Shown here in pieces: positions 1,215 through 14,455 of a stretch of DNA of 62,475 nt. The notes under the pieces are model-generated. The model saw only the letters and a program-made list of their open reading frames with translations, did not search any database and was not told where the DNA came from. A program made the position numbers and the translations under genes. The stretch comes from Promicromonospora citrea (GTDB taxonomy: Bacteria; Actinomycetota; Actinomycetes; Actinomycetales; Cellulomonadaceae): assembly GCF_013004695.1 (NCBI RefSeq), contig NZ_JABEMG010000010.1, positions 1-62,475 on the forward strand, given 5' to 3'. Positions within the stretch are counted from its first letter, which is position 1; every line of letters begins with the position of its first letter.

Positions 1215-1747
1215 CACGAGCTCAGCAGCTGATCGACCTGGCACGGCCCGTCCCTCCCGCGACCCCGTTCGACTGGCAGCGCGTCGAGGACCAGATCGGG
1301 GCCCCGGTGCCGCCCGACTACCGGGACCTCCTGGACGGCGGCGGCGGCGGCCTGTGGGCCGACGTCCTGCGCCTGTTCGTGCCGGCGCCGGGCGCAGGGT
1401 TCAAGCATGTCGACCTCGAGCGGTCCCGGCTCGAGTTCGAGCAGCTCCAGGACCTGTTCGAGGACGAGGTCGTCGAACGTCCCGCGGATCTCGGCGACGA
1501 GGACCGGCTCCTGCCCTGGGCCTCGACCGGCTCGGGCCTCACGTTCTACTGGCAGGTCGCGCCCGGGGCGGACCCCGAGACGTACCCGGTCCGCGTCTCG
1601 GACCGGAACGGGTACGTCTGGGAGCGGTACGACCTGCCGACGACCGACCTCGTGCTCCAGATCGTCGAGGGCGAGCTGCGCAGCGAGCTCGTCGACCCGT
1701 CGTGGGTGAACCGCGACCAGCTCTTCCAGCCGTACCAGCGCGAGTAG
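1211..1747 (+). CDS. SUKH (SMI1/KNR4)-type immunity protein
   Basis: A 178-residue acidic cytoplasmic protein with no signal peptide. The segment around residues 23-45 (W-x-x-VEDQIGAPVPPDY then DLLDGGGGG) matches the start of SUKH-superfamily immunity proteins, and the tail (SWVNRDQLFQPYQ) is also typical. Its ATG overlaps the stop of the upstream nuclease toxin, so the two are translated together; the expected job is to bind and neutralise that toxin in the producing cell. SUKH proteins pair with many nuclease toxins, so context supports the role. No other function is suggested by the sequence. Confidence 0.8.
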   Translation: MTRAQQLIDLARPVPPATPFDWQRVEDQIGAPVPPDYRDLLDGGGGGLWADVLRLFVPAPGAGFKHVDLERSRLEFEQLQDLFEDEVVERPADLGDEDRLLPWASTGSGLTFYWQVAPGADPETYPVRVSDRNGYVWERYDLPTTDLVLQIVEGELRSELVDPSWVNRDQLFQPYQRE

Positions 1748-1815: not shown

Positions 1816-4560
1816 TCAGCGCCGGACCGTCAGCTCGACCGTCGTCCAGTCGCGGGTGCCCTCGCTGTCCGTCGCGATGAGCCGCGCCGTGTACCGGCCG
1901 GGCTGCTCGTACACGTGGGTGACGGCCGCGCCGTCCGTCGTCGTGCCGTCGCCGAGGTCCCACCGGTAGGAGACGATCTCGCGCCCCTCGGGTGCGACCG
2001 CGGTGCCCGCCAGGTCGACCGGGGCACCGGCCCGCGGCCCGCGCACGGGCTCGGCCGTCACGGCCGGCGCCGCGTCGTCGGCGACGCCCCGGCCGTGGAA
2101 CACGAGCCAGTCGAGGCCGAGGTCGGCTCCGCCGTCGGGCTCGCGCGGGCTCGTGGCCACGAGGTACAGCGTGGTGGCGCCCTCCTCGCCCCGGATCCGG
2201 ATCGTGGGGGAGACGACCTGCCCGTCCCCGGTGGCCCGCGGGATGCGGACCCGGCCGAGCGTGTGCCCGGTCGGGCTGCCCTCCCGCACCTCGACGGTCG
2301 TGTCGGACGCGCCGCGCACGGCACCGATCGTCAGGCCGTCGATGCCACGCAGGTCCAGCGGGCCGAAGGCGATCCGGTCGCCGTCGTCGACGTCGGTGAC
2401 GAGCCGGCCGCCGCGAGCGTCCGCGTCGTCGGCCACGGTGACGCCGGAGCCGTCGGCGAAGAACTCGGCCTCCTTGTCCCGCACCTGCAGGCGAGCCGCG
2501 TCCTGGCCGGTCAGCTCCGGGATGTCGGCGGAGCCGAGGTCCTGGTAGCTCGCGCGGAGCACGGGGTAGACGTTCTGGCCGACGCCGTGGTCCGCAGGGT
2601 CGAGGAACACCGTCCCGGTGCAGCCGGTGTAGTTGTCGATGGGGTGGGCGTGCGAGTCGTGGCCGAGCTGGGTGCTCACCGTGACCCGCTCGCAGTCGAT
2701 CGTGCCCGCGTCGGTCGAGCCGTCCTCGACGTCGGCCACGTCGACCGCGTAGGGGACGGTGTCGCCGAGCTCGGCGAACCCGCCGTGCACCGGCGCCCCG
2801 AAGGCGACGTCGGGGCGCGTGTTGCCGACGGTGATCGTGTGCACCGAGACGCCGGTGAAGCCGTCGGTGTCCGTGACGGTCAGGCGGGCCTCGAACTGCC
2901 CGCGCTCGGCGTAGGTGTGCGTGGGGTTCGGTTCTGTGGAGTCGACGACGCCGTCGTTCTCGAAGTCCCACGCGTAGGTGATGTCGAGCCCGTCGGGGCT
3001 CGTGCTGGTGTCGCCCGTGAAGGCGACGGTCAGGGGCTCGTGACCGGAGTCGACGTCGGAGGTGAACCGCGAGATCGGCCGGCGGCCGTCGGCGGCGTGG
3101 TCGATGCGGTAGATGCCCGCGTCGGTGTTGGTGCTCCCGCGGCCGGCCCCCGAGCCGAGGCCGAAGTCGATGACGTAGAGCGAGCCGTCGGGTCCGAACT
3201 CGACCTCGAACGGGGCCACGAACGTCTCGTCCGGGAGGAACGGGTCGATCGCCTCGACCTCGCCCGTGCTCTCGTCGAGCGTGAGCGCCCGGTAGAAGTT
3301 GCGGGCGTACTCGGAGACGAACCACCGCCCGTCGAAGGCTTCCGGGAACTTCGTCTTCACGTCGAGCTCCGGGTCGAAGCGGTACACCGGGCCGGCCATC
3401 GGCGCGGCCCCGCCCTCGCCCATCTCGGGGAACTCCTCCGACGGCCCGTAGCCGTACCAGACCATCGGCTCCTGCGACGGCGGCAGCTCGCGCAGGCCGG
3501 TGTTGTTCGGCGAGTCGTTGACCGGCCGGGCGCAGTCGAACGGCTCGCCCGACTCGCCGGTGGCGAAGTCGTAGTCGATGTACGCCTGGTTGTCGGCGTG
3601 GCAGTAGGGCCAGCCGTGGTTGCCCGGCTCGGTCATCCGGATGAGCTCGACCTGGCCCTCGGGGCCGCGCAGCGGGTCGGCGACGCGGGCGTCCGGCCCG
3701 TAGTCGCCGACCATCACCGCCCCGGTCCCCGGGTCGACGGTGATCCGGAACGGGTTGCGGAAGCCCATGCCGTAGATCTCCGGGCGGGTCCCCTCGGTGC
3801 CCGGTGCGAAGAGGTTGCCCTCCGGGACCGTGTAGGTGCCGTCGTCCTCCGGCGTGATCCGCAGGACCTTGCCGCGCAGGTCGTTCGTGTTCGCGGACGT
3901 GCCCTGCGCGTCCCAGCCCCTGCGGCCGGGCCGCTCGTCGATCGGGGTGTAGCCCTGCTGGTCGAAGGGGTCGGAGTTGTCGCCGGTGGCCACGTAGAGG
4001 TCGCCGTCGGGGCCCATGGCGAGCGAGCCCGCCATGTGGGAGTTGGCGCGGCCCTCGCCGCGCCAGATGGTGTAGTCGAGCAGCCGCCGCTCCGACGCGG
4101 GGTCGATCGTGTCGTCGGGGCCCATCGTGAACCGCGAGAGGTTCATCTTCGCCACGTCGGGGTCGCTCCACAGCAGGTAGAGCCACCCGTTCTCGGTGAA
4201 GTCGGGGTCGAGGGTCAGGCCCAGCAGGCCGTCGGACTGCGTGAGCAGGTCCAGCGAGTAGTCGAGGTCCAGGGCCGTGGTGCGGCGCAGCGTGTCCTGG
4301 TCCAGCACGACCACCTGCCCGGTGCGCTGGATGTAGACGACGCGGCCGTCGTCGGCGACGTCGAGCTCGAACGGGTCGGCCAGGCCCTCGGTGACCAGGG
4401 GGACCTTGTCGAACTGGGTGTCGAACTGGGTGTCGGCCGGGGCGACGGGCTCGTGCGCCGTGGCGGCGGTGGTGGCGGGGACCAGGCCGGCGAGCCCGAC
4501 GACCAGGGCGGTCGTCGCGGCAGCGGCCCGGCGGCGCGCGCGGCGGTGTGATGCGGACAT
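1816..4560 (-). CDS. Secreted glucose/sorbosone dehydrogenase-like beta-propeller with PKD domains
   Basis: 914 residues. A twin-arginine-like N-terminus (RRARRRAAA then a hydrophobic stretch to about 40) marks export. Residues about 50-480 form a soluble-glucose-dehydrogenase/sorbosone-dehydrogenase-type six-bladed propeller (GLLGLTLDPDF, GDLYVATGDNSD, GNHGWPYCHADN, GSLYVIDFG). A PKD domain follows (about 490-575, YAWDFENDG), then a beta-rich region resembling a carbohydrate-binding module, then a second PKD domain at the end (YRWDLGDGTTTDG). No CXXCH haem motif is present. Family knowledge suggests PQQ-dependent oxidation of a sugar; PQQ binding cannot be verified. The start at 4560 has GGGAG just upstream. 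It is the last gene of a three-gene minus-strand unit, 83 bases after the TIM-barrel gene. Confidence 0.85.
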   Translation of the reverse strand: MSASHRRARRRAAAATTALVVGLAGLVPATTAATAHEPVAPADTQFDTQFDKVPLVTEGLADPFELDVADDGRVVYIQRTGQVVVLDQDTLRRTTALDLDYSLDLLTQSDGLLGLTLDPDFTENGWLYLLWSDPDVAKMNLSRFTMGPDDTIDPASERRLLDYTIWRGEGRANSHMAGSLAMGPDGDLYVATGDNSDPFDQQGYTPIDERPGRRGWDAQGTSANTNDLRGKVLRITPEDDGTYTVPEGNLFAPGTEGTRPEIYGMGFRNPFRITVDPGTGAVMVGDYGPDARVADPLRGPEGQVELIRMTEPGNHGWPYCHADNQAYIDYDFATGESGEPFDCARPVNDSPNNTGLRELPPSQEPMVWYGYGPSEEFPEMGEGGAAPMAGPVYRFDPELDVKTKFPEAFDGRWFVSEYARNFYRALTLDESTGEVEAIDPFLPDETFVAPFEVEFGPDGSLYVIDFGLGSGAGRGSTNTDAGIYRIDHAADGRRPISRFTSDVDSGHEPLTVAFTGDTSTSPDGLDITYAWDFENDGVVDSTEPNPTHTYAERGQFEARLTVTDTDGFTGVSVHTITVGNTRPDVAFGAPVHGGFAELGDTVPYAVDVADVEDGSTDAGTIDCERVTVSTQLGHDSHAHPIDNYTGCTGTVFLDPADHGVGQNVYPVLRASYQDLGSADIPELTGQDAARLQVRDKEAEFFADGSGVTVADDADARGGRLVTDVDDGDRIAFGPLDLRGIDGLTIGAVRGASDTTVEVREGSPTGHTLGRVRIPRATGDGQVVSPTIRIRGEEGATTLYLVATSPREPDGGADLGLDWLVFHGRGVADDAAPAVTAEPVRGPRAGAPVDLAGTAVAPEGREIVSYRWDLGDGTTTDGAAVTHVYEQPGRYTARLIATDSEGTRDWTTVELTVRR

Positions 4561-4643
4561 GGCACTCCCTCGTGCTCGGTCGGGTGCTGGTCTGGTGCTC
4601 GGTCGGGTGCAGTGACGGGCCAGGGGGCGGTGCCGGCAGCGGC

Positions 4644-5807
4644 TCAGTAGCGCAGCGCGGCGAGGTTGCCGAGGCTGGTGCACGCCGACGTCACGCCGTC
4701 GGGCGACGGCTGGTCGTGCTCGGTGAAGCCGTACCGGACCCCGGCCAGGGGAGCCGCGGCGAAGATCGCGGCGAAGTCGATGGTGCCCTCGCCCACGTCG
4801 GCGAAGGAGCCGTCGGCCGCCATGTCCTTGAGGTGCAGCAGCTCGAACCGCCCCGGGTACCGCTCGAAGAGGTCGGTGGCGGACGTGCCGACGCTCGCCG
4901 CCCAGTACACGTCGAGCTCCATCGTGACGAACGCGGGATCCGTCTCGCGGACCAGGACGTCGTACCCGGTCACGCCGTCGGGCGTGGACTCGAGCTCGAA
5001 CCCGTGGTTGTGGTAGGCGACCCGGATGCCCTCCGCCGCGAGCCGCTCGCCGGCCTCGTTCAGGATCGCGGCCGTCCGGGAGTAGTCGGCGAGGTCCCAG
5101 TCGCCCGAGCCCGAGACCCGCACGTACCGGGCACCGATCGCGTGCGCCTCGGCCGCGACGAGCTCGACGTCGTCCTGGAGGTTGCCCAGGCTCACGCCGA
5201 GCGAGGGCACCGTCAGCCCCGCGTCCCGGGTGAGCGGTGCGAGCTCCGCCGCGGTGTACCCGTAGAAGTTGCCCGCGCTGCCCGACGGCTCGATGTTCCG
5301 GAAGCCGCACGCGGCGAGCGCCCCGAGGGTCCCGGCGGCATCGGCCGGCATGGTCGCGCGGACCGTGTACCCGACCAGGCCGATCGCCGACAGGTCCACG
5401 GACCGCCTGCCCGTGACGGGGTGGGGCCGGCCGACCCGCGAGGCGGCGGCCGCGCGGACGACGGCGGCGCGCTCGGCGTGGGTGAGCACACCGTGCAGGA
5501 CGTGCCCGCGGGTCACCGAGGCGACGGCGGCGACGAACCGCCCGTGCGACGCGAACGGCGCGCGAGCCATGATCTCGTCCATGACGGTGCAGCCGTCCCC
5601 GGTGTCGCGGTTGGGCACGCCGGAGTCGGCGTCGGCGCCGAACCGGACGGTGGCCTCGCTCGTGTAGCCGTACGCGCACGCGTCCGCGGCCGGGGCGGGC
5701 GCCTGCTGCGCCGTCGCGGGCGGGGCGAGGAGCGGGAACGACAGCGCGGCGGCCAGCGCGACCGCGAGCCAGGGCCGGGAGCGGGTGGTGGGGGTGGTGT
5801 GTTCCAT
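4644..5807 (-). CDS. Secreted TIM-barrel sugar isomerase/epimerase-like enzyme
   Basis: 387 residues with a signal peptide (hydrophobic 13-33). Residues 44-125 are a separate module with paired Cys (44 and 73) around SGVPNRDTGDGC, known to me only as an unnamed domain of secreted actinobacterial proteins. Residues 135-387 are an AP-endonuclease-2-type TIM barrel (xylose isomerase-like): NIEPSG (171-176), HNH (266-268), ELD (297-299), HLKD (325-328) and TEHD (362-365) supply the usual metal ligands. Relatives include 3-keto-glycoside lyases and C-deglycosidases as well as epimerases, so the reaction is open; an extracytoplasmic sugar-modifying role fits the neighbours. It lies 31 bases after the upstream DUF1080 fusion gene and is probably cotranscribed with it. 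Confidence 0.85.
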   Translation of the reverse strand: MEHTTPTTRSRPWLAVALAAALSFPLLAPPATAQQAPAPAADACAYGYTSEATVRFGADADSGVPNRDTGDGCTVMDEIMARAPFASHGRFVAAVASVTRGHVLHGVLTHAERAAVVRAAAASRVGRPHPVTGRRSVDLSAIGLVGYTVRATMPADAAGTLGALAACGFRNIEPSGSAGNFYGYTAAELAPLTRDAGLTVPSLGVSLGNLQDDVELVAAEAHAIGARYVRVSGSGDWDLADYSRTAAILNEAGERLAAEGIRVAYHNHGFELESTPDGVTGYDVLVRETDPAFVTMELDVYWAASVGTSATDLFERYPGRFELLHLKDMAADGSFADVGEGTIDFAAIFAAAPLAGVRYGFTEHDQPSPDGVTSACTSLGNLAALRY

Positions 5808-5838
5808 CGGACGAACCTCTCGGTCGAAGGGAGCCTGC

Positions 5839-8800
5839 TCAGGGCCGGGCGCCGGCGGCGTCAGGGAGCCGCTCGACCCAGATGTTCCGGAACAGCGGGT
5901 TGAGGCCGGGGTCGCCGTGGTCCTGCAGCCGGATGTGTCCCGGCGTCGGCCCCTCGTCCCGGCCGTTGCCGGTCTTGCCGTCGACCGCCACGTCGTCGTG
6001 CACCAGGCGGCCGTTCCACCGGAGCGAGATCCGGGCGTCCTCGGTCTTGCTGCCGTCGGCGGCGAACCGGGCGGCGCGGAAGACGATGTCGTACCGCTGC
6101 CAGGTCCCCATCGGGGTGGCCGCGTTCACGTCGGGCGGCTTCCTGAGGTAGATCGCCCCGGCGCCGTCCGGCTCGGGCGGGTCGATGCCGAAGGACTCCA
6201 GTACCTGGACCTCGTAGCGCTCCTGGAGGTAGACGCCGCTGTTGCCGCGGGCCTGGCCGGTGACGTCGTCGGCGTGCCGCGGCTGGAACCACTCGACGTG
6301 CAGCCGGAAGTCGCCGAACCGGTCCCGGGTGCGGATGTCGCCGCCGACGGACTCCATGGTGCGGCCCTCGACGGGCCACGTCGCGGGTCCGCCCCCGACC
6401 GCCTCCCACGCGTCCAGGTCGCCGCCGTCGAACAGCGTCACGCGCCGGGTCGGGGTGACCGTGAGGCTGTCGAGGTTGACGTGGCCCACGTCGTCGGCGT
6501 CGTACGCCCAGGCGACGGTGTTGGCGCCCCTGCGCAGCTCCACGGTCTCCGTGTGGGTCGCCCACGTGGACCAGCTCACGGTGCTGTCGAGCCAGACCTG
6601 CTTGACCTTCTCGCCGTTGACGTACAGGCTCATCGACCGCGGCAGAGGGCTGGGGTCGGCGTTCTGCCCGTTCGCGTACCGCAGCGTGAGGTCGTGCCGG
6701 CCCGCCCGGTCGGCGCGGACGGCGAACGTGGTGCGGGAGCCGGGCTCCCAGTTGCGGTCGACGAACCCGGCGCCCGAGTACCCGGCGTGGTTCGTGTTCC
6801 ACCCGGCGCCGCCCGAGAGGTCGGCGGCCTCGGCCTCGTAGACCGGCGGCGCGGTGGAGCCGTCGGGCAGGCGGGTGAGGGTGTACCAGGCCTCGGTGCT
6901 CCACAGCTCCTGGCCGCTCGCGTCGGCGAACGGGCGCGGTGAGTGCAGGTGGACGACGCGGCCCGGCCGCAGGCCGTCGATCCGGAGGGTGACCGTCCGG
7001 CGGTCGGGCGACAGGGTGGCGCCCGTGACGTCGAGCTCCTCCTCGTCGACCTTGGGGCCGCCGTACTGCGGCGTCGACACGTAGCGCCACTGCGCCACGG
7101 CGTACCGCTCCGCCAGGTCCTGCGCGGTCTCGTCCGACAGCGGCTGGGTGTACTCGACCTCGAACCCGCCGGGGACCGCGCGCATCTCGAGCATGTCGAA
7201 CGCGCGGCTCTCGTCGAAGGTGAGCCGCTGCAGGCCGTACCCGAGCTTGCCCTCCTGCCCCCAGTTGCCGGACCAGCCGATACCGCCCACGTAGACCGAC
7301 CCGTCGGGCCCGACGCTCGTCCGGCTCACCCCCGACTCCAGGCCCTGCGTCATGCGGAACACGGCGCCCTGCTCCTGGCCGGCGACGGTCTCGAGGTGGA
7401 TGCGCTGCAGACCGCCGTACGTGACGTCGCCGACCGCCATCTGCCCGGCGAACACGCCCTCGGTGAGGATGACGGGGTTGCTCGGCGAGTTCGAGATCTC
7501 ACCGTGCGGCAGCCACAGCACGGGCTCGGTGACGGGCTGGTCGTCGTACGGGCCGTCGGGGTTGGTGTAGTGGTTCCAGAACGCGCCCTCCCGCACGCGG
7601 ACCAGCTTCGACGTCGGCACGTGCATGCCCTGGTTGTCCGTGACGTACATGCCGCCGTCCGCCCCGAACCCGAGGCCGTTGGGGGTGCGCAGGCCGCCCG
7701 CGAGGTACTCGACCTCGCCCGTGTCCTCGTCGATCTTCAGCACCGAGCCGCGGTTCGGCACGAGCTGCGGGTCGCGGGTCGCGCCGCCGGGCACCATCGC
7801 GATGCCCGTCGTGACGTAGAAGAAGCCGTCCTCGTACAGGAGCCCGAACGCGAACTCGTGGTAGTTGCCGCCGAACGGCCAGGTCGCGACCTGGCGGTAC
7901 TCGTCGGTGACCTCGTCGCCGTCGGTGTCCACGAGCTCGGTGAGCTGGTGCTTCTCGGAGACGTAGATGCGCCCGTCGACCACCGTGAGGCCCATCGGTT
8001 CCTGGAGCTCCTCGGCGATCCGCGTGTACGTCACGTCGCCGGCGTCGCCGTCCCCGGTCACGCCGTCGACCAGGTACACCTCGCCGAGCACGGTCTCCCG
8101 GTCGCCGCCCCAGGTGGCGATGGCCATGCGGCCGTCCGGCAGCCAGTCCATGCCGGTGACCTGCGGCTCGAAGCCGTCCGGGCGCAGGTCCGTGAGCGTG
8201 TAGTCGGGGTGCACCCCGGTCAGCGGCAGACCGTCGCCCGGCGACTCGGTGACGCCCTCGCACTGCTTGCGGCCCGGCGACGTCACGCGCGTGACGTCGG
8301 CGTCCGTGCTGAGCACCGAGCTCGGCACCACGGCGAACCCGTCGGCGCCCGGCGGGCGCCACTCCAGGGTGAGCTGCTGGTCGTGATCGCCGTCGAAGTG
8401 GTCGACGCGCAGGGCGTGGTACCCGGCCTCGAGGGTGGCCGAGCCGTCCTTCGGCGTCGCCCCGTGCCTGCCCGGGTGGTCGACGACGACGGCGTCGTCG
8501 AGCAGCAGGCGCGCGCCGTCGTCGCTCGTGAGCCGGAACTCGTAGGTGCCCGCCTCGGGCGCGTCCAGATAACCGGTCACCTCGGTGACGAACCGGTCGG
8601 CGAACCCGAAGTCGTCGACCGTGCGCCAGTCGATCGTCGGCATGAGCCGGTCGACGTTCGGCGTCTGGCCGGGCTTGAGCGTGCAGTAGTCCTCGAGCGG
8701 CACCTGGACGTCGAAGACCCGCATCGTCACGCCGGGCTCCTGGGGGCGCGTGGGGTCGGTGGCCGCGGTGCCCGCCGTGCCCGCGAGGGCAGGGAGGGCC

Positions 8801-8889
8801 GTCAGCGGCAGCACGAGCGCGCCGATCAGCGCGGCGATCGTGCGGTGAGGTGATCTGCGTGCCGGTCTGCGTGCCGTGCTGCGGTTCAT
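5839..8889 (-). CDS. Secreted PA14 / beta-propeller / carbohydrate-binding / DUF1080 (3-keto-disaccharide hydrolase-like) fusion
   Basis: 1016 residues, first gene of the minus-strand unit. After a Tat-like signal (RRPARRSPHRT, cleavage near 36) come: a PA14 domain (about 55-190; YEFRLTSDDGARLLLDD), a sorbosone-dehydrogenase-like propeller (about 205-520; GLRTPNGLGFGADGGMYVTDNQG), a beta linker, a CBM6/35-like module (about 690-815; YEAEAADLSGGA) and a C-terminal DUF1080 domain (about 820-1012; GNSGVYLQERYEVQVLESFG and the final FRNIWVERL). DUF1080 proteins include 3-keto-disaccharide hydrolases and 3-keto-2-hydroxyglucal hydratases. The start at 8889 is chosen because the signal peptide begins there and GGAGAGG lies upstream; an in-frame ATG at 8958 would fall inside the operator. 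Substrate unknown. Confidence 0.85.
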   Translation of the reverse strand: MNRSTARRPARRSPHRTIAALIGALVLPLTALPALAGTAGTAATDPTRPQEPGVTMRVFDVQVPLEDYCTLKPGQTPNVDRLMPTIDWRTVDDFGFADRFVTEVTGYLDAPEAGTYEFRLTSDDGARLLLDDAVVVDHPGRHGATPKDGSATLEAGYHALRVDHFDGDHDQQLTLEWRPPGADGFAVVPSSVLSTDADVTRVTSPGRKQCEGVTESPGDGLPLTGVHPDYTLTDLRPDGFEPQVTGMDWLPDGRMAIATWGGDRETVLGEVYLVDGVTGDGDAGDVTYTRIAEELQEPMGLTVVDGRIYVSEKHQLTELVDTDGDEVTDEYRQVATWPFGGNYHEFAFGLLYEDGFFYVTTGIAMVPGGATRDPQLVPNRGSVLKIDEDTGEVEYLAGGLRTPNGLGFGADGGMYVTDNQGMHVPTSKLVRVREGAFWNHYTNPDGPYDDQPVTEPVLWLPHGEISNSPSNPVILTEGVFAGQMAVGDVTYGGLQRIHLETVAGQEQGAVFRMTQGLESGVSRTSVGPDGSVYVGGIGWSGNWGQEGKLGYGLQRLTFDESRAFDMLEMRAVPGGFEVEYTQPLSDETAQDLAERYAVAQWRYVSTPQYGGPKVDEEELDVTGATLSPDRRTVTLRIDGLRPGRVVHLHSPRPFADASGQELWSTEAWYTLTRLPDGSTAPPVYEAEAADLSGGAGWNTNHAGYSGAGFVDRNWEPGSRTTFAVRADRAGRHDLTLRYANGQNADPSPLPRSMSLYVNGEKVKQVWLDSTVSWSTWATHTETVELRRGANTVAWAYDADDVGHVNLDSLTVTPTRRVTLFDGGDLDAWEAVGGGPATWPVEGRTMESVGGDIRTRDRFGDFRLHVEWFQPRHADDVTGQARGNSGVYLQERYEVQVLESFGIDPPEPDGAGAIYLRKPPDVNAATPMGTWQRYDIVFRAARFAADGSKTEDARISLRWNGRLVHDDVAVDGKTGNGRDEGPTPGHIRLQDHGDPGLNPLFRNIWVERLPDAAGARP

Positions 8890-8953
8890 GGGCCTGCCTC
8901 TCCGTCGAGGACGTTCCCTGCCGCCCGTCAGCATGCGGCGGGCGCAGACCCCG

Positions 8954-8977
8954 GACAACGAGTTGCCACTTGTTGCC
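8954..8977. promoter_or_regulatory. LacI-type operator 1, before the secreted-enzyme operon
   Basis: On the minus strand this reads GGCAACAAGTGGCAAC followed by TCGTTGTC, an imperfect dyad (8 of 10 half-site bases). Including three more flanking bases (8951-8953), 27 bases are identical to the site at 10522-10548. Its TTGTCC end can serve as a -35 box with CATGCT as -10 at 17-base spacing, so LacI binding would block this promoter. Confidence 0.8.
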
Positions 8978-9012
8978 CCTGTGCCGGCTCTCTGGCCGGT
9001 CCTCCGGCGGGT

Positions 9013-10041
9013 TCAGCCGCGGCGCGCCGTCGAGCCCCGCTCGACGAGCTTGGCCGGCAGCAGGGCCGGCACGGACAGGCCGGGCGACGGGGTGCGGAGC
9101 TGGTTGAGCAGGCGCTGCACGGCGAACGCCCCGAAGTGGCGCAGCGGGGCGGCGACCGTGGTCAGCGGCGGGGTGCAGAAGTCGGAGCCGAAGATGTTGT
9201 CGAACCCGACGACGCTCAGCTCGCGCGGGATGTCGACGCCCAACCGCGTCAGCCCGCGCATCGCGCCGATCGCGACCAGGTCGTTGTAGGCGACCGTCGC
9301 CGTCGCGGCGTGGGTGGTCAGGGCCTGGGCCGCCGAGAGTCCGCCGGCGAGCGTGGGCGCGAACGGGCCGAGCCGCCGGGCGCGCAGGCCGAGCTCCTGG
9401 GTCGCCTCGCGGAACGCGCGCCAGCGCATGCCGTCGGCCCACGACGCCTCGGGCCCGGCGAGGTAGGTCAGGCGGGTGTGTCCCAGCCCCGCGAGGTGCT
9501 CGACGGCGCGCCGCATCCCCTGCGCGTTGTCGGTGATCACGCTCGGCACGTCGGTGACGACGCGGTTCATGACGACGGTCGGGCGCTGCTTGGCGACGGC
9601 CCGGATCGCCGAGTCCGACAGCCGGGAGGTGGCCAGCACGATGCCCTCCACGAGCGGGAGGGTGCGTTCCAGCGCCCGGCGCTCGGCGCCGCTCGACTCG
9701 TGGGCGTCGACCACCAGCAGCGTGTACCCGGCATCGATCGCCGTCTTCTCCGCGCTGCGGATGATCTCGAAGAAGAACGGGTTGGTGAGGTCGGCGACGA
9801 CGATCGCGAGCAGCGCCGTCCTGCCGTCCGGCCGCGCCCGCCCGATCGGCCGGGTGCGGTACCCGAGCTCGTGCGCCACCCGGCGGATCCGCTCCGCGGT
9901 CTCCGCGTTGACCCGGCCCGGCCGGGAGAACGCCCGCGACACGGTCGACGGCGCGACGTCGGCGGCCCTGGCGACGTCGTAGATGGTCGGTCTGGTGTCC
10001 GGTGTGGCCGAAGAGCTCCCTGTCTCGCCAGTTTCGCCCAT
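9013..10041 (-). CDS. LacI-family transcriptional repressor of the carbohydrate regulon
   Basis: 342 residues. The N-terminal helix-turn-helix (TIYDVARAADVAPSTVSRAF, about residues 18-37) and hinge are followed by a periplasmic-binding-like sensor domain (LAIVVADLTNPFFFEIIRSA; the terminal GLSVPALLPAKLVERGSTA is typical). It should repress its targets until a sugar-like ligand binds. It lies between the two transcription units that carry identical operators, and a diverged operator lies just upstream of its own gene, suggesting autoregulation. The start is uncertain: ATG at 10041 has no clear ribosome site, and an in-frame ATG at 10083 would add 14 residues. Confidence 0.93.
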   Translation of the reverse strand: MGETGETGSSSATPDTRPTIYDVARAADVAPSTVSRAFSRPGRVNAETAERIRRVAHELGYRTRPIGRARPDGRTALLAIVVADLTNPFFFEIIRSAEKTAIDAGYTLLVVDAHESSGAERRALERTLPLVEGIVLATSRLSDSAIRAVAKQRPTVVMNRVVTDVPSVITDNAQGMRRAVEHLAGLGHTRLTYLAGPEASWADGMRWRAFREATQELGLRARRLGPFAPTLAGGLSAAQALTTHAATATVAYNDLVAIGAMRGLTRLGVDIPRELSVVGFDNIFGSDFCTPPLTTVAAPLRHFGAFAVQRLLNQLRTPSPGLSVPALLPAKLVERGSTARRG

Positions 10042-10125
10042 GCGCGGGGAGCGTACGGCGCGCCCGGCGCTCGCGGCAACCATCTGCCGTGAAACCACGT
10101 AGGTGTGGCATGTCCTTACCTGCCC

Positions 10126-10149
10126 GGCAAGAGGTGGCAACACCTTGAC
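10126..10149. promoter_or_regulatory. LacI-type operator 3 (diverged), before lacI
   Basis: GGCAAGAGGTGGCAAC followed by ACCTTGAC matches 19 of 24 positions of the two identical operators and keeps the central TGGCAAC core. Its place about 85 bases upstream of the repressor start suggests weaker autoregulation. Confidence 0.55.
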
Positions 10150-10179
10150 TGCCCCTGTGCCGCACCCTCGAATGACAGC

Positions 10180-10506
10180 ATGCCGCCGCCGACCGATCCG
10201 CCGGACCTGCCTGACGACGAGCTCGGCCACCTGCCCGGCGACCTGCCCGGCCACCTGCCCGGCCTGGTCGCCGACGAGGCGGCGGTGCAGGTCGAGGCCG
10301 CCGAGAGCGAGCTGCGGCGGCTGGGTCTGGAGGAGATCCGCGTGCGGCACCACGGTGACCTGGCCCGCCTCGAGGCACCCCACCACGACCTCGCGAGCGT
10401 GGCGGCCGAGCCGTTGCGCGGCGAGGTGCTGCGGGCCGTGCGGTCCGCGGGGTTCCGGTCCGTCGCTGTCGACCTGGAGGCAGTCCCGGACCCGCGCGAG
10501 GTGTGA
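10180..10506 (+). pseudogene. Fragment resembling the C-terminal end of LarE (PP-loop sulfur transferase)
   Basis: 108 codons from ATG. Residues about 45-105 (ESELRRLGLEEIRVRHHGDLARLE, in two parts, then VRSAGFRSVAVDLEA) match the conserved C-terminal region of LarE/ExsB-type ATP-dependent sacrificial sulfur transferases. The whole PP-loop ATPase part is absent and the end diverges where intact proteins read LEGYRSGSLN. The first 35 residues are low-complexity PDLP/GHLPGDLPGHLPG repeats of unclear origin. It sits alone between lacI and the importer operon, after operator 3. Most likely a decayed remnant; a short expressed protein is possible but has no evident function. Confidence 0.6.
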
Positions 10507-10521
10507 CCTCGGCACCGGCAC

Positions 10522-10545
10522 GGCAACAAGTGGCAACTCGTTGTC
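10522..10545 (+). promoter_or_regulatory. LacI-type operator 2 and promoter, before the importer operon
   Basis: The same 24 bases as operator 1 in inverted genome orientation, about 80 bases before the permease start. TTGTCC (10541-10546) and TAGTGT (10564-10569) form a -35/-10 pair with 17-base spacing, so the operator covers the -35 box. Confidence 0.8.
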
Positions 10546-10624
10546 CGGCCCCACCGCGGCTCCTAGTGTCCGTGGGACGCGCGGCCTCACCGGCGAGGCC
10601 GCTGACCTGCTGGAGGTCCACGCC

Positions 10625-11437
10625 ATGGTGACGTCCCGGGAGGCCCGCCCCACGGCCGTGGCGCTGCTCGCGGAGGGCTGGCGGCCGGTGGCGGTGCTGC
10701 TGGCCCTGTTCGCCGTGTGGTGGTTCGTCGCGTGGCGCGAGCTCGTCCCCGCCTATCTCGTGCCCTCCCCGGGTGCGGTCGCGGAGACGATGGCCGCCGA
10801 CTGGGCGATGCTGCTCGAGCACACGTGGGTGACCACGCTCGAGACGATCGTCGGCTTCGCGCTCGCCGCGGTGATCGGCGTGGCGGCGGCCGTGCTGCTG
10901 GTCTACTCCCGGACCGCCGAGCGTTCGCTCTACCCGCTGATCCTGTTCGCGCAGGTCATCCCCAAGATCGCCATCGCGCCCATCCTCGTGGTCTGGTTCG
11001 GCTTCGGGATGACGCCGAAGATCGTGCTCGCCGTGCTCATCGCCTTCTTCCCCGTGGTGGTCTCGGCGGTGGCCGGGCTGCGCTCGGTCGACCCGGAGCT
11101 GCTCGAGCTGTCCGCGACCATGGGCGCCTCACGGTGGAAGACGTTCCGCAAGATCCGGTTCCCCGGCGCGCTGCCGCAGCTCGTGTCCGGCCTCAAGGTC
11201 GCGGTCACCCTGGCCGTCGTGGGCGCCGTCGTCGGCGAGTTCGTGGGGGCCGACCGCGGCCTCGGGTACGTGCTGCTGCTGGCCAGCGGCAACCTCGATG
11301 CCCCGCTGCTGTTCGCCGACCTCCTCCTCATGTCGCTCATCGGCGTGGTCCTCTTCGTGCTCGTCGAGGTGCTCGAACGGCTCCTCGTCCCGTGGCACGC
11401 GTCGCGGCGCACCGGCCTCGCGCTCGCGACGGTCTGA
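10625..11437 (+). CDS. ABC transporter permease, nitrate/sulfonate/taurine (SsuC-TauC) type
   Basis: 270 residues with about six membrane segments. The cytoplasmic EAA-type loop reads ELLELSATMGASRWKTF (about 158-174) and precedes KIRFPGALP, the usual coupling site for the ATPase. The start has GGAGG 8 bases upstream. It is the first gene of an importer unit with a lipoprotein receptor (64 bases downstream) and ATPase. Paralogues carry sulfonates, nitrate, pyrimidine precursors and other small molecules, so the solute is not fixed by sequence; the shared operator ties it to the secreted sugar-active proteins. Confidence 0.92.
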   Translation: MVTSREARPTAVALLAEGWRPVAVLLALFAVWWFVAWRELVPAYLVPSPGAVAETMAADWAMLLEHTWVTTLETIVGFALAAVIGVAAAVLLVYSRTAERSLYPLILFAQVIPKIAIAPILVVWFGFGMTPKIVLAVLIAFFPVVVSAVAGLRSVDPELLELSATMGASRWKTFRKIRFPGALPQLVSGLKVAVTLAVVGAVVGEFVGADRGLGYVLLLASGNLDAPLLFADLLLMSLIGVVLFVLVEVLERLLVPWHASRRTGLALATV

Positions 11438-11500
11438 CGGCCGCCCACCCTCCCGCGTCCCGCGCCGTCGCGACGGCGGCCCGACAGAAAGGTCCGACCC

Positions 11501-12589
11501 ATGCGTGGTACCCGGCGTCACACAGCGCACGACCGCACGAACGACGAGAGGGACGGCGGCAGGCGGCGCGGGCCGCGCCCGCGCAGGCTCGCGACGTCCC
11601 TGGCAGCCGGGTCGGCGGTCGCGGCCCTCGCCGCGTGCGGGCAGGCCGCAGGCCCGGCGGGCGAGACGAACGCCGAGGGCCTGCAGGAGGTCACGGTCAC
11701 CCTGAACTGGGTGCCGTACGGCGAGCACGCGCCGTTCTACCTCGGCGTCGCCGACGGCATCTTCGAGGACGAGGGGATCGACCTCACGATCCAGCCCGGC
11801 AACGGGTCCGGCAACACCGTCCAGCAGGTCGCGCAGCGCAACACCGACTTCGGCTGGGCGGACACGCCGCCGCTCGCCAACGGGATCGCCTCGGGCATGC
11901 CGGTGCGCAGCGTCGGCGTCTTCCTGCAGACCGGGCCGAGCTCCGTCGAGTTCTTCGAGGACCAGGGCATCACCGAGCCCGCGGACCTCGTGGGCAAGAC
12001 GGTCGGCGGCACGCCGGGCGACGCGATGTACGGCACGTTCCCCGCGTGGCTCGAGATCAACGGCGTGGACCCGGCGGACGTGACGGTGGTCAACGTCGAC
12101 GCGGCGGGCAAGATCGCCGCGCTCATCGAGGGCAAGGTCGACGCGATCCAGGGCTTCTACCACGACCAGTCCGCGACCATCGAGGACCAGACGGGCAAGG
12201 AGGTGTCCGCGCTGCCCTTCGCCGACTTCGGCATGAACATGCTCGGCACCGGCCTCGTCGCGCACGAGGCGACCATCGAGAGCGACCCCGGGCTGGTCCA
12301 GGCGATGGTGCGGGCGACGTCGCGCTCGTTCCAGGCCGCGGCCGAGGACCCGCAGGCCGCCGTCGCCGCGATGGCCGAGGGCGCCGAGCAGGCGCCGGAC
12401 GAGAGCGTGCTGACGGCGCAGCTCGAGGCGACCGTCGGCCTGCTCGACCTGGAGGGCGCGCCCGCCCCGGGCGTCAACACCGAGCAGCAGTGGACGGACA
12501 CGCTGACGTTCCTCACCGAGAACACCGACTTCGACGGCGGGACGACGCCGGGCGACTTCTGGGACGCGAGCTTCGGGGAGGACCTGTGA
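11501..12589 (+). CDS. ABC transporter substrate-binding lipoprotein, NMT1/THI5-like
   Basis: 362 residues. A long basic, Arg-rich N-region precedes a lipoprotein signal with lipobox LAAC (Cys about 46). The mature part is NMT1/THI5-like: VTLNWVPYGEHAPFYLGVADG, DFGWADTPPLANG and GKTVGGTPGD are characteristic. It should capture the solute outside the membrane and hand it to the adjacent permease. AGAAAGG lies upstream of the ATG. The family binds pyrimidines, sulfonates or small organic anions in known cases; the ligand here is unknown. The stop overlaps the GTG of the ATPase by four bases. Confidence 0.92.
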   Translation: MRGTRRHTAHDRTNDERDGGRRRGPRPRRLATSLAAGSAVAALAACGQAAGPAGETNAEGLQEVTVTLNWVPYGEHAPFYLGVADGIFEDEGIDLTIQPGNGSGNTVQQVAQRNTDFGWADTPPLANGIASGMPVRSVGVFLQTGPSSVEFFEDQGITEPADLVGKTVGGTPGDAMYGTFPAWLEINGVDPADVTVVNVDAAGKIAALIEGKVDAIQGFYHDQSATIEDQTGKEVSALPFADFGMNMLGTGLVAHEATIESDPGLVQAMVRATSRSFQAAAEDPQAAVAAMAEGAEQAPDESVLTAQLEATVGLLDLEGAPAPGVNTEQQWTDTLTFLTENTDFDGGTTPGDFWDASFGEDL

Positions 12590-13407
12590 CCGCGACCGCG
12601 GAACAGGGCGCCGCGACCGGCCCCGCGCCCGCCGCGGAGCCGATCATCGAGGTCTCGCACGTCACCTGCCGCTTCACGTCCCGGCGCTCGGAGACGGTCG
12701 CGCTGGAGGACGTCTCGCTGGCCGTGCGGCCGGGGGAGTTCGTGACGGTCGCGGGGCCCTCGGGCTGCGGCAAGTCCACCCTGCTCAAGCTCGTCGCGGG
12801 CCTCGTGCCGGCGACCGAGGGCGACGTGCGCCTGTACGGCCGGCCGGTCACCGGCCCGCAGCGCGAGATCGGGTTCGCGTTCCAGCGCTCGGCCCTGCTC
12901 GAGTGGCGCGGCGTGCGGCGGAACATCCTGCTGCAGGCCGAGATGCGCGGGATGGACCGCCGCAGGGCCGAGGAGCGCGCCGACCGCCTCATCGAGCTCA
13001 CCGGCCTGACCGGGTTCGAGAAGGCGCTGCCGCACGAGCTGTCCGGCGGCATGCAGCAGCGGGTCGCGCTGTGCCGCGCCCTGCTGCACGAGCCCCGTGT
13101 CCTGCTCATGGACGAGCCGTTCGGCGCGCTCGACGCCCTGACCCGCGAGCAGATGAACACGGAGATGAACCGGATCTGGCGCGAGACGGGCACCACGGTG
13201 GTGCTCGTGACCCACTCGGTTCCGGAGGCGGTGTACCTGGGCAGCCGGATCGTCGTCATGAGCCCCCGGCCGGGCCGGATCGTCGAGATCCTCGAACCAG
13301 GGCTCCCGGAGCACCGCGAGTACGGGCCCACGCTCGCCGACCCCCGGTTCGCGGCGGCGGCCGCCCGCCTGCGGGACCTGCTCGGCGCGAGCCACGCGCC
13401 GGAGTGA
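12586..13407 (+). CDS. ABC transporter ATP-binding protein, SsuB/TauB type
   Basis: 273 residues from GTG, which overlaps the receptor stop (GTGA). Walker A GPSGCGKST, Q-loop AFQRSALLEW, signature LSGGMQQR, Walker B VLLMDEPFGALD and the H-loop THSVPEA are all intact, so it should power the importer with the two preceding genes. The Q-loop/LEW form and the short C-terminal tail without a regulatory domain match nitrate/sulfonate-type ATPases. It ends 10 bases before the oxidoreductase gene, suggesting continued transcription into it. Confidence 0.93.
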   Translation: MTATAEQGAATGPAPAAEPIIEVSHVTCRFTSRRSETVALEDVSLAVRPGEFVTVAGPSGCGKSTLLKLVAGLVPATEGDVRLYGRPVTGPQREIGFAFQRSALLEWRGVRRNILLQAEMRGMDRRRAEERADRLIELTGLTGFEKALPHELSGGMQQRVALCRALLHEPRVLLMDEPFGALDALTREQMNTEMNRIWRETGTTVVLVTHSVPEAVYLGSRIVVMSPRPGRIVEILEPGLPEHREYGPTLADPRFAAAAARLRDLLGASHAPE

Positions 13408-13417
13408 GGCGCGCACG

Positions 13418-14455
13418 GTGAGCGGCTGCGGTCTCGGCGTCGGCCTGGTCGGCCTGGGCGGCATCGGCACGATGCACGCCCGGGCGCTCGCCGAGCTCCC
13501 GGGCCGGGCACGGCTCGTCGCGGTCAGCGGGAGCGGCACGCCCGGCACCGGTCCCGTGCCCGCGCGGCTGCCGCCGCACGAGGTGATCGCCCACCCGGAC
13601 GTCGACGTCGTCGCGATCTGCACCCCGAGCCACACCCACGCGGCGCTCGCGCTGGCCGCCCTCGAGGCCGGGCGGCACGTCGTCGTCGAGAAGCCGCTCG
13701 CGCTCGACGTCGGCGACGCGCTGCGCGTCGCGCGAGCAGCGCACGACCGCGGCCTGTCGGTCTCGATGATCGCGCAGCGCCGCCTGGAGCCGGAGTACCG
13801 GGCGCTCGCGCGCGCCGTCACCGACGCGGCGCTGGGCGACCTGCGCCTCGCGGTCACCCAGGTGCCCTGGCACCGTGACGACGGCTACTACCGCGCGGCG
13901 CCGTGGCGCGCAGCGCCCGGCCGCGGCGGCGGGTCCCTGATGAACCAGGGTGTGCACAGCGTCGACCTGCTGCGGTGGGTGTGCGGTCGGGCCTGTGGCC
14001 CGGTCGAGTCGGTGACCGCGCAGGCAGGCACCCTCGCGCACGACGTCGCGGTCGAGGACACGACGGTCGCGACGCTCCGGTTCGCCTCCGGCGCGCTGGG
14101 CGTCCTGACCACGACGACGGCGACCCCGCCCGGCTTCCCGGCGACCCTCGCCGTGTACGGGTCGCAGGGCTCGGCCGAGCTCGGCCAGGGCGCCGTGCTC
14201 CGCTGGGACGTGCCGGGCGTGCCGCCGCCGTCGGCGGCGGCGAGCCCGACGAGCGGCGCCGCGGACCCGCTGGCCATCGGGCACACGGGGCACCTGGCGC
14301 AGTGGGCGCGGATCGTCGACGCGCTCGAGGCGGGCACGCCCGTCCCGGTCGGGGTCGACGACGCCGTCGAGACGGTGCGGCTGCTGTGCGCGATCGAGGA
14401 GGCCGCGGCGTCGGGCCGGGCGGTGCGGCCGGCTGACCTGGGGGCCGCACCCTGA
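13418..14455 (+). CDS. Gfo/Idh/MocA-family NAD(P)-dependent oxidoreductase
   Basis: 345 residues from GTG. The N-terminal Rossmann fold has GLVGLGGIGTMHARAL and CTPSHTHAALAL; the EKP motif (VVVEKPLALD) and GGSLMNQGVHSVDLL, with its conserved His, mark the active site. There is no signal peptide, so it works in the cytoplasm. Family members oxidise or reduce hydroxyls of sugars, inositols and glycosides, including C3 oxidation of glucosides. As the last gene of the LacI-controlled importer unit it probably acts on the imported compound. A Pro/Ala-rich insertion near residue 270 is unusual but does not touch conserved motifs. Confidence 0.9.
   Translation: MSGCGLGVGLVGLGGIGTMHARALAELPGRARLVAVSGSGTPGTGPVPARLPPHEVIAHPDVDVVAICTPSHTHAALALAALEAGRHVVVEKPLALDVGDALRVARAAHDRGLSVSMIAQRRLEPEYRALARAVTDAALGDLRLAVTQVPWHRDDGYYRAAPWRAAPGRGGGSLMNQGVHSVDLLRWVCGRACGPVESVTAQAGTLAHDVAVEDTTVATLRFASGALGVLTTTTATPPGFPATLAVYGSQGSAELGQGAVLRWDVPGVPPPSAAASPTSGAADPLAIGHTGHLAQWARIVDALEAGTPVPVGVDDAVETVRLLCAIEEAAASGRAVRPADLGAAP

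What the first reader, a model, noticed from the sequence alone, without database searches (positions are those of the whole stretch)
1816..14455. A LacI regulon that may run an extracellular 3-keto-glycoside breakdown route
Seen: two transcription units on opposite strands share an identical 27-base operator that overlaps the -35 box in both, and the LacI gene lies between them. One unit encodes three secreted proteins: a PA14/propeller/CBM/DUF1080 fusion, a TIM-barrel lyase/epimerase-type enzyme and a sorbosone-dehydrogenase-type propeller. The other encodes an NMT1-type importer and a Gfo/Idh/MocA oxidoreductase. Known: DUF1080 proteins, TIM-barrel isomerase-like lyases and Gfo/Idh dehydrogenases together form the recently described 3-keto route of glycoside cleavage in bacteria. 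Inference: here oxidation, elimination and hydration could happen outside the cell, with the propeller protein in place of, or besides, the NAD enzyme, followed by import. I do not know this arrangement as a described system.
Basis: partly seen in the sequence, partly recalled or inferred. Interest (0 to 1): 0.8.

Follow-up and report, generated by a model that had tools for sequence, protein, structure and literature searches.

The report
Secreted 3-keto-sugar breakdown regulon
A soil bacterium switches on, with one repressor, a set of secreted proteins that look built to break sugar linkages by an unusual elimination reaction outside the cell, together with an importer and an enzyme for the product; the gene pairing recurs in Streptomyces and other actinobacteria, but the chemistry has not been tested.

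Summary
The 27-nt operator occurs twice; its 24-nt core matches nowhere else in the genome at up to 3 mismatches. A third, diverged copy lies beside LacI. The operator is in 25 of 221 family genomes. The genus is Promicromonospora.

The secreted TIM barrel keeps the metal ligands and catalytic His of the 3-keto-glucoside beta-eliminase AtOGE in 19 of 19 aligned barrels, the window's included. The DUF1080 domain is full-length. The sorbosone-dehydrogenase-like propeller travels with the lyase: 37 of 80 lyase-relative loci have both propeller and NMT1 importer, and one ORF holds propeller and lyase in 7 family loci. The same genome has a ThuA-propeller-DUF1080 polypeptide.

The weak point is oxidation: none of 42 propellers examined has the C-terminal Arg-x-Arg PQQ contact, so the oxidant is unproven.

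Best reading: a compartment-split 3-keto pathway, elimination and perhaps hydration outside, reduction inside. New variant of a known kind; no biochemistry, substrate or inducer is known.

The parts
1816..4560 (-). secreted GSDH-like propeller + PKD + CBM6 + PKD protein
   Evidence: Pfam; Foldseek top hits sGDH 1cru and, lower, Asd-type 2ism; signal-like N-terminus
4644..5807 (-). secreted xylose-isomerase-like TIM barrel, candidate AtOGE-type 3-keto-glycoside beta-eliminase
   Evidence: Pfam; PDB hits 8tcs, 8tcd, 8tct, 8bvk; AtOGE ligands and catalytic His conserved; signal-like N-terminus
5839..8889 (-). secreted PA14 + DUF7133 propeller + CBM35/CBM6 + DUF1080 (3-keto-disaccharide hydrolase) protein
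   Evidence: Pfam; DUF1080 domain vs 4qhz E=2e-37; signal-like N-terminus
8951..8977 (-). LacI operator O1 of the secreted operon, overlapping a -35-like TTGTCC (8958-8953)
9013..10041 (-). LacI-family repressor
   Evidence: Pfam; co-conserved with the operator
10128..10147 (+). third, diverged operator O3 between LacI and the LarE-like gene
   Evidence: also in L036-L042, L098 and 4 of 11 loci L086-L096 at up to 2 mismatches
10180..10506 (+). small conserved protein matching only the C-terminal part of LarE
   Evidence: NCBIfam TIGR00268 positions 186-252, below cut-off; 21 related loci hit
10522..10548 (+). LacI operator O2 of the importer operon, overlapping a -35-like TTGTCC (10541-10546); -10-like TAGTGT 10564-10569
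10625..11437 (+). ABC permease (SsuC/TauC type)
11501..12589 (+). NMT1/SsuA-type substrate-binding protein with a lipoprotein-like N-terminus
12586..13407 (+). ABC ATPase
13418..14455 (+). Gfo/Idh/MocA oxidoreductase without a signal-like N-terminus, candidate 3-keto-sugar reductase

Best explanation
One LacI repressor acting on three operators controls a compartment-split 3-keto-glycoside pathway. SEEN in the sequence: the shared operators, the signal-like N-termini, the intact lyase site, the full-length DUF1080 domain, the importer, and a Gfo/Idh/MocA enzyme without export signal. INFERRED: outside the cell the carbohydrate-binding proteins hold a glycoside whose C3 has become a ketone. The secreted TIM barrel breaks the glycosidic bond by metal-dependent beta-elimination, giving a leaving alcohol and a 2-hydroxy-3-keto-glycal. 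The secreted DUF1080 protein hydrates this or cleaves 3-keto-disaccharides directly. In relatives that carry it, a second, unexported TIM barrel may hydrate inside the cell. The NMT1-type importer takes up the keto product and the Gfo/Idh/MocA enzyme reduces it to an ordinary sugar. NOT ASSIGNED: what oxidises C3. The GSDH-like propeller is the best candidate by linkage and fusion, but it lacks the usual C-terminal PQQ contacts.
For: Operator in 25 of 221 family genomes, reversed-pattern control 0; in the genus, the same 3 of 13 genomes lack both the operator and a close lyase. Operator columns 0.97-1.0 identical at 44 sites with distant flanks 0.42-0.57 (sites chosen by match to the core). 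Cassette complete and in order in L036-L041; operators with LacI, importer and DUF1080 fusion in 11 of 11 loci L086-L096 of two other genera. All five AtOGE residues (H132, H134, D163, H189, E233; PMC10628242 section 8) in the window protein and invariant in 19 of 19 aligned barrels. Propeller and lyase in one ORF in 7 of 7 loci L048-L054 (Pfam on 2 of the 7). Of 80 lyase-relative loci 41 carry the propeller, 40 the importer, 37 both. ThuA + GSDH + DUF1080 in one 1440-aa protein of this genome. A second TIM barrel in the importer operon of relatives. Gfo protein hits 8tdi glucuronide-3-dehydrogenase at 7e-23; NCBIfam LevoglcsnDh and BT_2158_fam match below cut-off.
Against: No biochemical evidence, substrate or inducer. 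No convincing C3 oxidant: Arg-x-Arg before the last PDG loop is absent in all 42 propellers examined. The binding protein's best NCBIfam hits are sulfonate/taurine families, all below cut-off. The Gfo protein's best NCBIfam hit is inositol 2-dehydrogenase and the TIM barrel's is inosose dehydratase, both far below cut-off. AtOGE His66, and Glu161 in most fused barrels, ligands of its alternative metal position, are not conserved. The DUF1080 fusion model failed (pLDDT 44). In the 30 Streptomyces loci no DUF1080 hit and one weak Gfo hit (L149) appeared in the fetched flanks, so the later steps are not part of the widespread core.
Confidence: 0.55

Rival explanations
1. Whole oxidation-elimination-hydration outside the cell: the GSDH-like propeller itself oxidises C3 (a quinone or another cofactor, electrons perhaps to a secreted copper protein), the TIM barrel eliminates, DUF1080 hydrates, import follows.
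For: Fold is sGDH/Asd-like. His and Arg-Asn counterparts invariant in 16 of 16 aligned sequences, window included. In one ORF with TIM barrels and, in this genome, with ThuA and DUF1080, overlapped by a gene for a protein with a plastocyanin-type domain.
Against: Arg-x-Arg motif absent in all 42 propellers examined, both arginines present in the two canonical proteins of the same genome; 4 Jiangella proteins keep an Arg at the first of the two positions (my reading). The Lys377 counterpart is Ala or Ser by hand placement against recalled sGDH letters. AA12 enzymes lack that Lys but keep arginines (PMC6881789 passages). HHIP, in the same Foldseek list, is not an enzyme (recalled). The PQQ-synthesis search was uninformative. 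Own-genome hits of this kind match PF07995 only to positions 205-234 of 332 (4 hits), the two canonical ones to 327 and 329.
Confidence: 0.3
2. The importer carries the released aglycone (an aromatic or sulfonate-like small molecule), not the sugar; the enzymes strip sugar from a plant glycoside to reach it.
For: Binding protein, permease and ATPase fall with SsuA/Tau/NMT1-type families; AtOGE acts on a flavonoid glucoside (PMC10628242).
Against: The same operon carries a sugar-type Gfo enzyme and, in relatives, a sugar-isomerase-type TIM barrel; among the nine genes annotated here none is an aromatic-catabolism gene.
Confidence: 0.15
3. Inositol-type chemistry: the TIM barrel is a secreted inosose-dehydratase-like enzyme and Gfo an inositol dehydrogenase; no glycosidic bond is broken by elimination.
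For: Best NCBIfam hits of both are IolE and IolG.
Against: Scores far below the curated cut-offs (37 vs 290, 131 vs 355). PDB matches are 8tcs/8tcd/8tct and AtOGE, sharing the YHNH stretch. CBM, PKD, PA14 and DUF1080 partners point to glycans.
Confidence: 0.1

Closest known systems
Agrobacterium GlycDH-AtOGE-AtHYD-Gfo operon (PMC10628242; passages and section 8 seen)
   Same: TIM-barrel beta-eliminase with the same metal ligands and catalytic His; Gfo reductase; a second TIM barrel as hydratase (here only in relatives)
   Different: There the oxidant is a flavoprotein, and the words periplasm, signal peptide and secreted do not occur in the text; here the lyase has an export signal, propeller and DUF1080 partners and an NMT1 importer
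Levoglucosan pathway LgdA-B1-B2-C of Bacillus smithii (PMC7676230; abstract and passages seen)
   Same: oxidation, elimination, hydration, reduction logic; LacI gene and sugar ABC importer in the cluster
   Different: NAD-dependent oxidation first, the word extracellular absent from the text; here the lyase is exported and no LgdA equivalent was identified in the cassette
DUF1080 periplasmic 3-ketolactose route of Caulobacter (PMC9007349; passages seen)
   Same: an extracytoplasmic DUF1080 protein proposed to act on a 3-keto-glycoside after membrane oxidation
   Different: LacABC oxidase there; here a secreted multidomain protein with a TIM-barrel lyase and no LacABC in the cassette
Broad-specificity 3-keto glycan pathway of gut Bacteroides (Nature 2024, content recalled; only its title words were seen, as text hits in three other papers)
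   Same: DUF1080, TIM-barrel and Gfo/Idh families together
   Different: Here actinobacterial, LacI-controlled, with GSDH-like propeller and NMT1 importer
ThuAB 3-keto route of rhizobia (Ampomah 2013; title seen in reference lists)
   Same: ThuA genes tied to 3-keto disaccharides; ThuA is fused to the propeller in L121 (Streptomyces), L111 (Jiangella) and elsewhere in this genome
   Different: The window cassette has no ThuA domain; a DUF1080 protein is present

Membership tests
AtOGE-type 3-keto-glycoside beta-eliminase | TIM barrel with metal ligands H132, D163, H189, E233 and catalytic H134 | tested here: met
   alignment to 8BVK; invariant in 19 of 19 aligned barrels, window included; residue roles from PMC10628242 section 8
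AtOGE-type 3-keto-glycoside beta-eliminase | beta-elimination activity on a 3-keto-glycoside | not testable with these tools
   needs purified enzyme
DUF1080 / 3-keto-disaccharide hydrolase (PF06439) | full-length domain match above the curated cut-off | tested here: met
   122 bits vs 26.8, profile 3-187 of 187; 4qhz E=2e-37
DUF1080 / 3-keto-disaccharide hydrolase (PF06439) | catalytic residues of characterised hydratases | not tested
   I made no search aimed at these residues; RGNSG and YEVQVL stretches are shared with 4qhz, their role unknown to me
PQQ-dependent soluble glucose/aldose dehydrogenase | propeller fold of sGDH/Asd | tested here: met
   Foldseek 1cru E=5e-18, 2ism_A TMt 0.79; model mean pLDDT 71 with loops under 50
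PQQ-dependent soluble glucose/aldose dehydrogenase | catalytic His (H144) and Arg-Asn (228-229) counterparts | tested here: met
   aligned, invariant in 16 of 16; His role from PMC6881789, Arg-Asn numbering recalled
PQQ-dependent soluble glucose/aldose dehydrogenase | C-terminal PQQ contacts (Lys377, Arg406, Arg408) | tested here: not met
   no RxR[DE] in the last 190 residues of the matched region in 42 of 42 propeller ORFs from 41 loci; canonical L181 (RIRT) and L182 (RLRD) have the two arginines. Roles of Lys377 and Arg408 from PMC6881789, Arg406 recalled; Lys position placed by hand
Oxidation-elimination-hydration-reduction operon (Lgd / AtOGE type) | dedicated C3 oxidant in the cluster | tested here: inconclusive
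   only the propeller and the Gfo protein are candidates
Oxidation-elimination-hydration-reduction operon (Lgd / AtOGE type) | lyase, hydratase-type enzyme and Gfo reductase families together | tested here: met
   TIM + DUF1080 + Gfo in the window; second TIM barrel in relatives
LacI local regulon | palindromic operator at the promoters, conserved with the LacI gene | tested here: met
   binding itself not tested

The most novel reading that the evidence does not exclude
The GSDH-like propeller and the TIM-barrel lyase form a secreted oxidise-and-eliminate machine, in some actinobacteria on one polypeptide with one to three lyase domains. It cuts glycans outside Gram-positive cells without hydrolysis, using a cofactor site different from known PQQ enzymes, and feeds a dedicated NMT1-type importer of keto-sugars that recurs in Streptomyces and Jiangella.
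Probability: 0.25. Interest if true: 0.85.

Novelty: new variant of a known kind. Interest (0 to 1): 0.62.

Why it matters
If the reading is right, soil actinobacteria of several genera break glycosides outside the cell by elimination, not hydrolysis, and import a keto-sugar. Annotation built on glycoside hydrolases would miss this carbon route, and it would give a first function to a family of secreted propeller proteins now labelled sugar dehydrogenases. The regulon offers a direct entry: the operators, the binding protein and the lyase can each be tested separately.

Tried and rejected
A PQQ-synthesis search (TIGR02111) rang in no control genome, so it says nothing. The DUF1080 fusion was modelled (979 residues, 12 rows, pLDDT 44) and not used; only the propeller model went to Foldseek. 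A strict sigma-70 scan found nothing; the promoter claim rests on conserved spacing. A script alignment with canonical Asd proteins misplaced the C-terminus and missed L181. A first motif count looked at 37 ORFs and left out four Jiangella loci and L155; a second picked wrong domains; one search covers 42 ORFs of all 41 propeller loci and is the one I cite. I first took the second TIM barrel and the DUF1080 fusion to replace each other; one search showed a distant DUF1080 fusion (30% in the domain) beside L044, so this is dropped as an argument. A search for GMC flavo-oxidases found two hits elsewhere in the genome, not followed. The window's genome has no good match to the relatives' second TIM barrel (best 26%). 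That I found no description of the gene set in print rests: 62 and 100 listed no paper, 16 one, 67 five and 88 fifteen of 32, of which I opened only PMC9007349; from the other listed titles none is on this subject. Many subscription papers are not held.
Full report
WHAT IS THERE. The finding covers nine genes, LacI among them. Pfam and NCBIfam give, on the minus strand, a GSDH-like propeller with PKD, CBM6 and PKD domains (1816-4560), an AP_endonuc_2 TIM barrel (4644-5807) and a PA14 + DUF7133 + CBM35/CBM6 + DUF1080 protein (5839-8889). LacI follows (9013-10041). On the plus strand lie a small protein matching the C-terminal part of LarE (10180-10506), an SsuC-type permease, an NMT1-type binding protein, an ATPase and a Gfo/Idh/MocA oxidoreductase (10625-14455). 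The three secreted-type proteins begin with signal-like stretches and the binding protein with a lipoprotein-like one; the Gfo protein shows none. These are readings by eye; no signal-peptide program was available.

THE OPERATOR. The 27-nt site occurs at 8951-8977 (-) and 10522-10548 (+). A 24-nt core has no further match in the genome at up to 3 mismatches. A third, diverged palindrome, CAAGAGGTGGCAACACCTTG, lies at 10128-10147 between LacI and the LarE-like gene. Three sites are found in each of L036-L041, and in L042 with one mismatch; the third site is seen in L098 and in 4 of 11 loci of two other genera. The operator at up to 1 mismatch is in 25 of 221 family genomes, reversed-pattern control 0. 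One of these, G005, has no cassette beside it (L097); G149 was not fetched. Within the genus 10 of 13 genomes have the operator, and the other three (G048, G077, G117) are also those without a close lyase. In 29 sequences examined, chosen for carrying the lyase or the site, 44 sites were taken at up to 1 mismatch; operator columns are then 0.97-1.0 identical (partly by construction), the five columns on either side 0.82 and 0.75, the -10 region 0.65-0.66 and the other flanks 0.42-0.57. A TTGTCC-like -35 at the operator end is followed after 17 nt by TAGTGT or CATAGT in the window's importer operon and many relatives.

THE HOST AND THE CONSERVED SET. Of the 20 loci fetched first, six carry the complete set in the same order (L036-L041). 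L042 lacks the DUF1080 gene between TIM and LacI. L043 is incomplete. L044 (same genus) and L045 (another genus) are rearranged but linked. L046 and L047 (a further genus) hold TIM and propeller with an operator in front. L048-L055 were chosen as distant relatives. In 11 of 11 loci L086-L096 (ten of genus g7, one of g11; fetched because the operator was there) the operators flank DUF1080 fusion, LacI, LarE-like gene and importer operon. In these 11 the importer operon also carries a second TIM barrel (read as lacking an export signal in L088 and L096; Pfam on L088); a TIM-propeller pair with its own operator lies elsewhere in G049 and G098. The second TIM barrel is not seen in L036-L043, and is present in L044, L045 and L099 and in L107 and L108. 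No DUF1080 hit was seen in L045, L107 and L108 in the stretch fetched; L044 has a distant one just beyond its end.

THE LYASE. The nearest solved structures of the TIM barrel are 8tcs, 8tcd, 8tct and AtOGE 8BVK. AtOGE converts 3-keto-phlorizin by beta-elimination, with metal ligands H132, D163, H189 (E233 weak) and essential H134 (PMC10628242). All five are present in the window protein and invariant in 19 of 19 aligned barrels, window included; six of these come from five fused proteins and one from a single distant gene. Ligands of the alternative metal position are not all conserved (His66 no; Glu161 is Gln in five of the six fused barrels).

DUF1080. The domain matches PF06439 over its length (122 bits) and 4qhz at 2e-37. 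Catalytic residues were not compared. PMC9007349 (passages) proposes a periplasmic DUF1080 enzyme for 3-ketolactose in Caulobacter, so extracytoplasmic 3-keto cleavage is not itself new.

THE PROPELLER. Foldseek puts the model (mean pLDDT 71) next to sGDH and Asd enzymes, with HHIP and AA12 also in the list. The His and Arg-Asn counterparts are invariant in 16 of 16. The C-terminal region differs: where the two canonical proteins of this genome read RIRT or RLRD before the PDG loop, none of 42 propeller ORFs from 41 named-genome loci has RxR[DE]; the usual letters are APFEAEFGPDG or NQPFDADFGPDG, and four Jiangella proteins keep one Arg (LRPIDLQFGPDG). AA12 enzymes lack Lys377 too but keep two of three arginines (PMC6881789 passages). 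Ordinary PQQ binding is thus not supported; an unusual cofactor site is not excluded.

LINKAGE BEYOND THE FAMILY. The one scan of named genomes used the lyase alignment; 302 stretches encoded a relative and the best 80 were kept. Of these 80, 41 carry the propeller (over 150 bits), 40 the NMT1 binding protein (over 150 bits) and 37 both. By my count of those rows the 37 are 6 of 7 Promicromonospora, 4 of 4 Jiangella and 27 of 30 Streptomyces. Agromyces and Georgenia have the importer without the propeller in the flank, and Halosaccharopolyspora the propeller alone. L103, L161, L162 and L166 have short stored flanks or assembly gaps on the missing side. The remaining 36 loci (Bradyrhizobium, Bacteroidota, Alicyclobacillus, Paenibacillus and others) have neither over the threshold. 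The 37 are not independent, being mostly Streptomyces. In 29 of the 30 Streptomyces rows the lyase begins with an RR-x-(F/L)-L stretch before a hydrophobic segment, as Tat signals do; the thirtieth (L166) is cut. In L121 and L111, the two tested, the propeller protein has an N-terminal ThuA domain, a family tied to 3-keto disaccharide use in rhizobia (title of Ampomah 2013 in reference lists).

FUSIONS. In L048-L054 (7 of 7) propeller and one to three lyase barrels lie in one ORF; Pfam was run on two of the seven and agreed. The window's own genome has a 1440-aa ThuA + GSDH + PKD + DUF1080 protein overlapped by a gene for a protein with a plastocyanin-type domain, and a second cluster ThuA-GSDH / TIM / GSDH. 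These fusions tie propeller, lyase and DUF1080 to one process. They are the strongest argument that the propeller takes part in 3-keto chemistry, possibly as the oxidant with a copper protein as acceptor; that last step is inference.

MECHANISM. By analogy with the Lgd pathway (LgdA oxidises, LgdB1 eliminates, LgdB2 hydrates, LgdC reduces; PMC7676230) and the AtOGE operon, the set fits a pathway split by the membrane: elimination outside, hydration outside by DUF1080 or inside by the second TIM barrel of relatives, uptake by the NMT1 importer, reduction by Gfo. The Gfo protein's solved relatives include glucuronide-3-dehydrogenase 8tdi. The substrate is unknown; PKD, CBM6, CBM35 and PA14 domains suggest a glycan or glycoside polymer.

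VERDICT. The regulon is well supported by sequence, the lyase assignment is likely, the pathway is plausible (0.55) and the oxidant is open. It is a new variant of the known 3-keto pathways; the searches behind the statement that I found no description in print are named in Tried and rejected.

Noticed in passing
window 10180-10506 (+): Conserved stand-alone protein matching only the C-terminal part of LarE (TIGR00268 positions 186-252, below cut-off); 21 related loci hit; the genome has no LarE match over cut-off. Its role in the regulon is unexplained.
   Followed up: partly
window 27-1747 (+): Gene for a pretoxin-HINT + DNA/RNA non-specific endonuclease protein followed by a SUKH-1-like (just below cut-off) protein: a likely polymorphic toxin and immunity pair.
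   Followed up: no
window 5839-8889 (-): The window DUF1080 fusion ends about 100 residues earlier than 18 relatives, which carry an extra C-terminal domain of two kinds; one kind also ends propeller-lyase fusions in L048 and L049 and another secreted protein in L049.
   Followed up: partly
L192 1295-7548 (own genome, contig 255): ThuA + F5/8C + GSDH + PKD + DUF1080 in one 1440-aa protein, overlapped by a gene for a protein with a plastocyanin-type copper domain.
   Followed up: partly
L193 36-7077 (own genome, contig 69): Second cluster: ThuA-GSDH-PKD-CBM6 / TIM barrel / GSDH-PKD-CBM6.
   Followed up: partly
L054 5628-12440: 2270-aa ORF with the propeller and three lyase barrels, a long proline-valine-aspartate repeat tail and an LAKTG sorting-signal-like C-terminus.
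   Followed up: no
L046 10569-13294: The propeller gene of G098 lies in two reading frames, a real break or a sequencing error.
   Followed up: no
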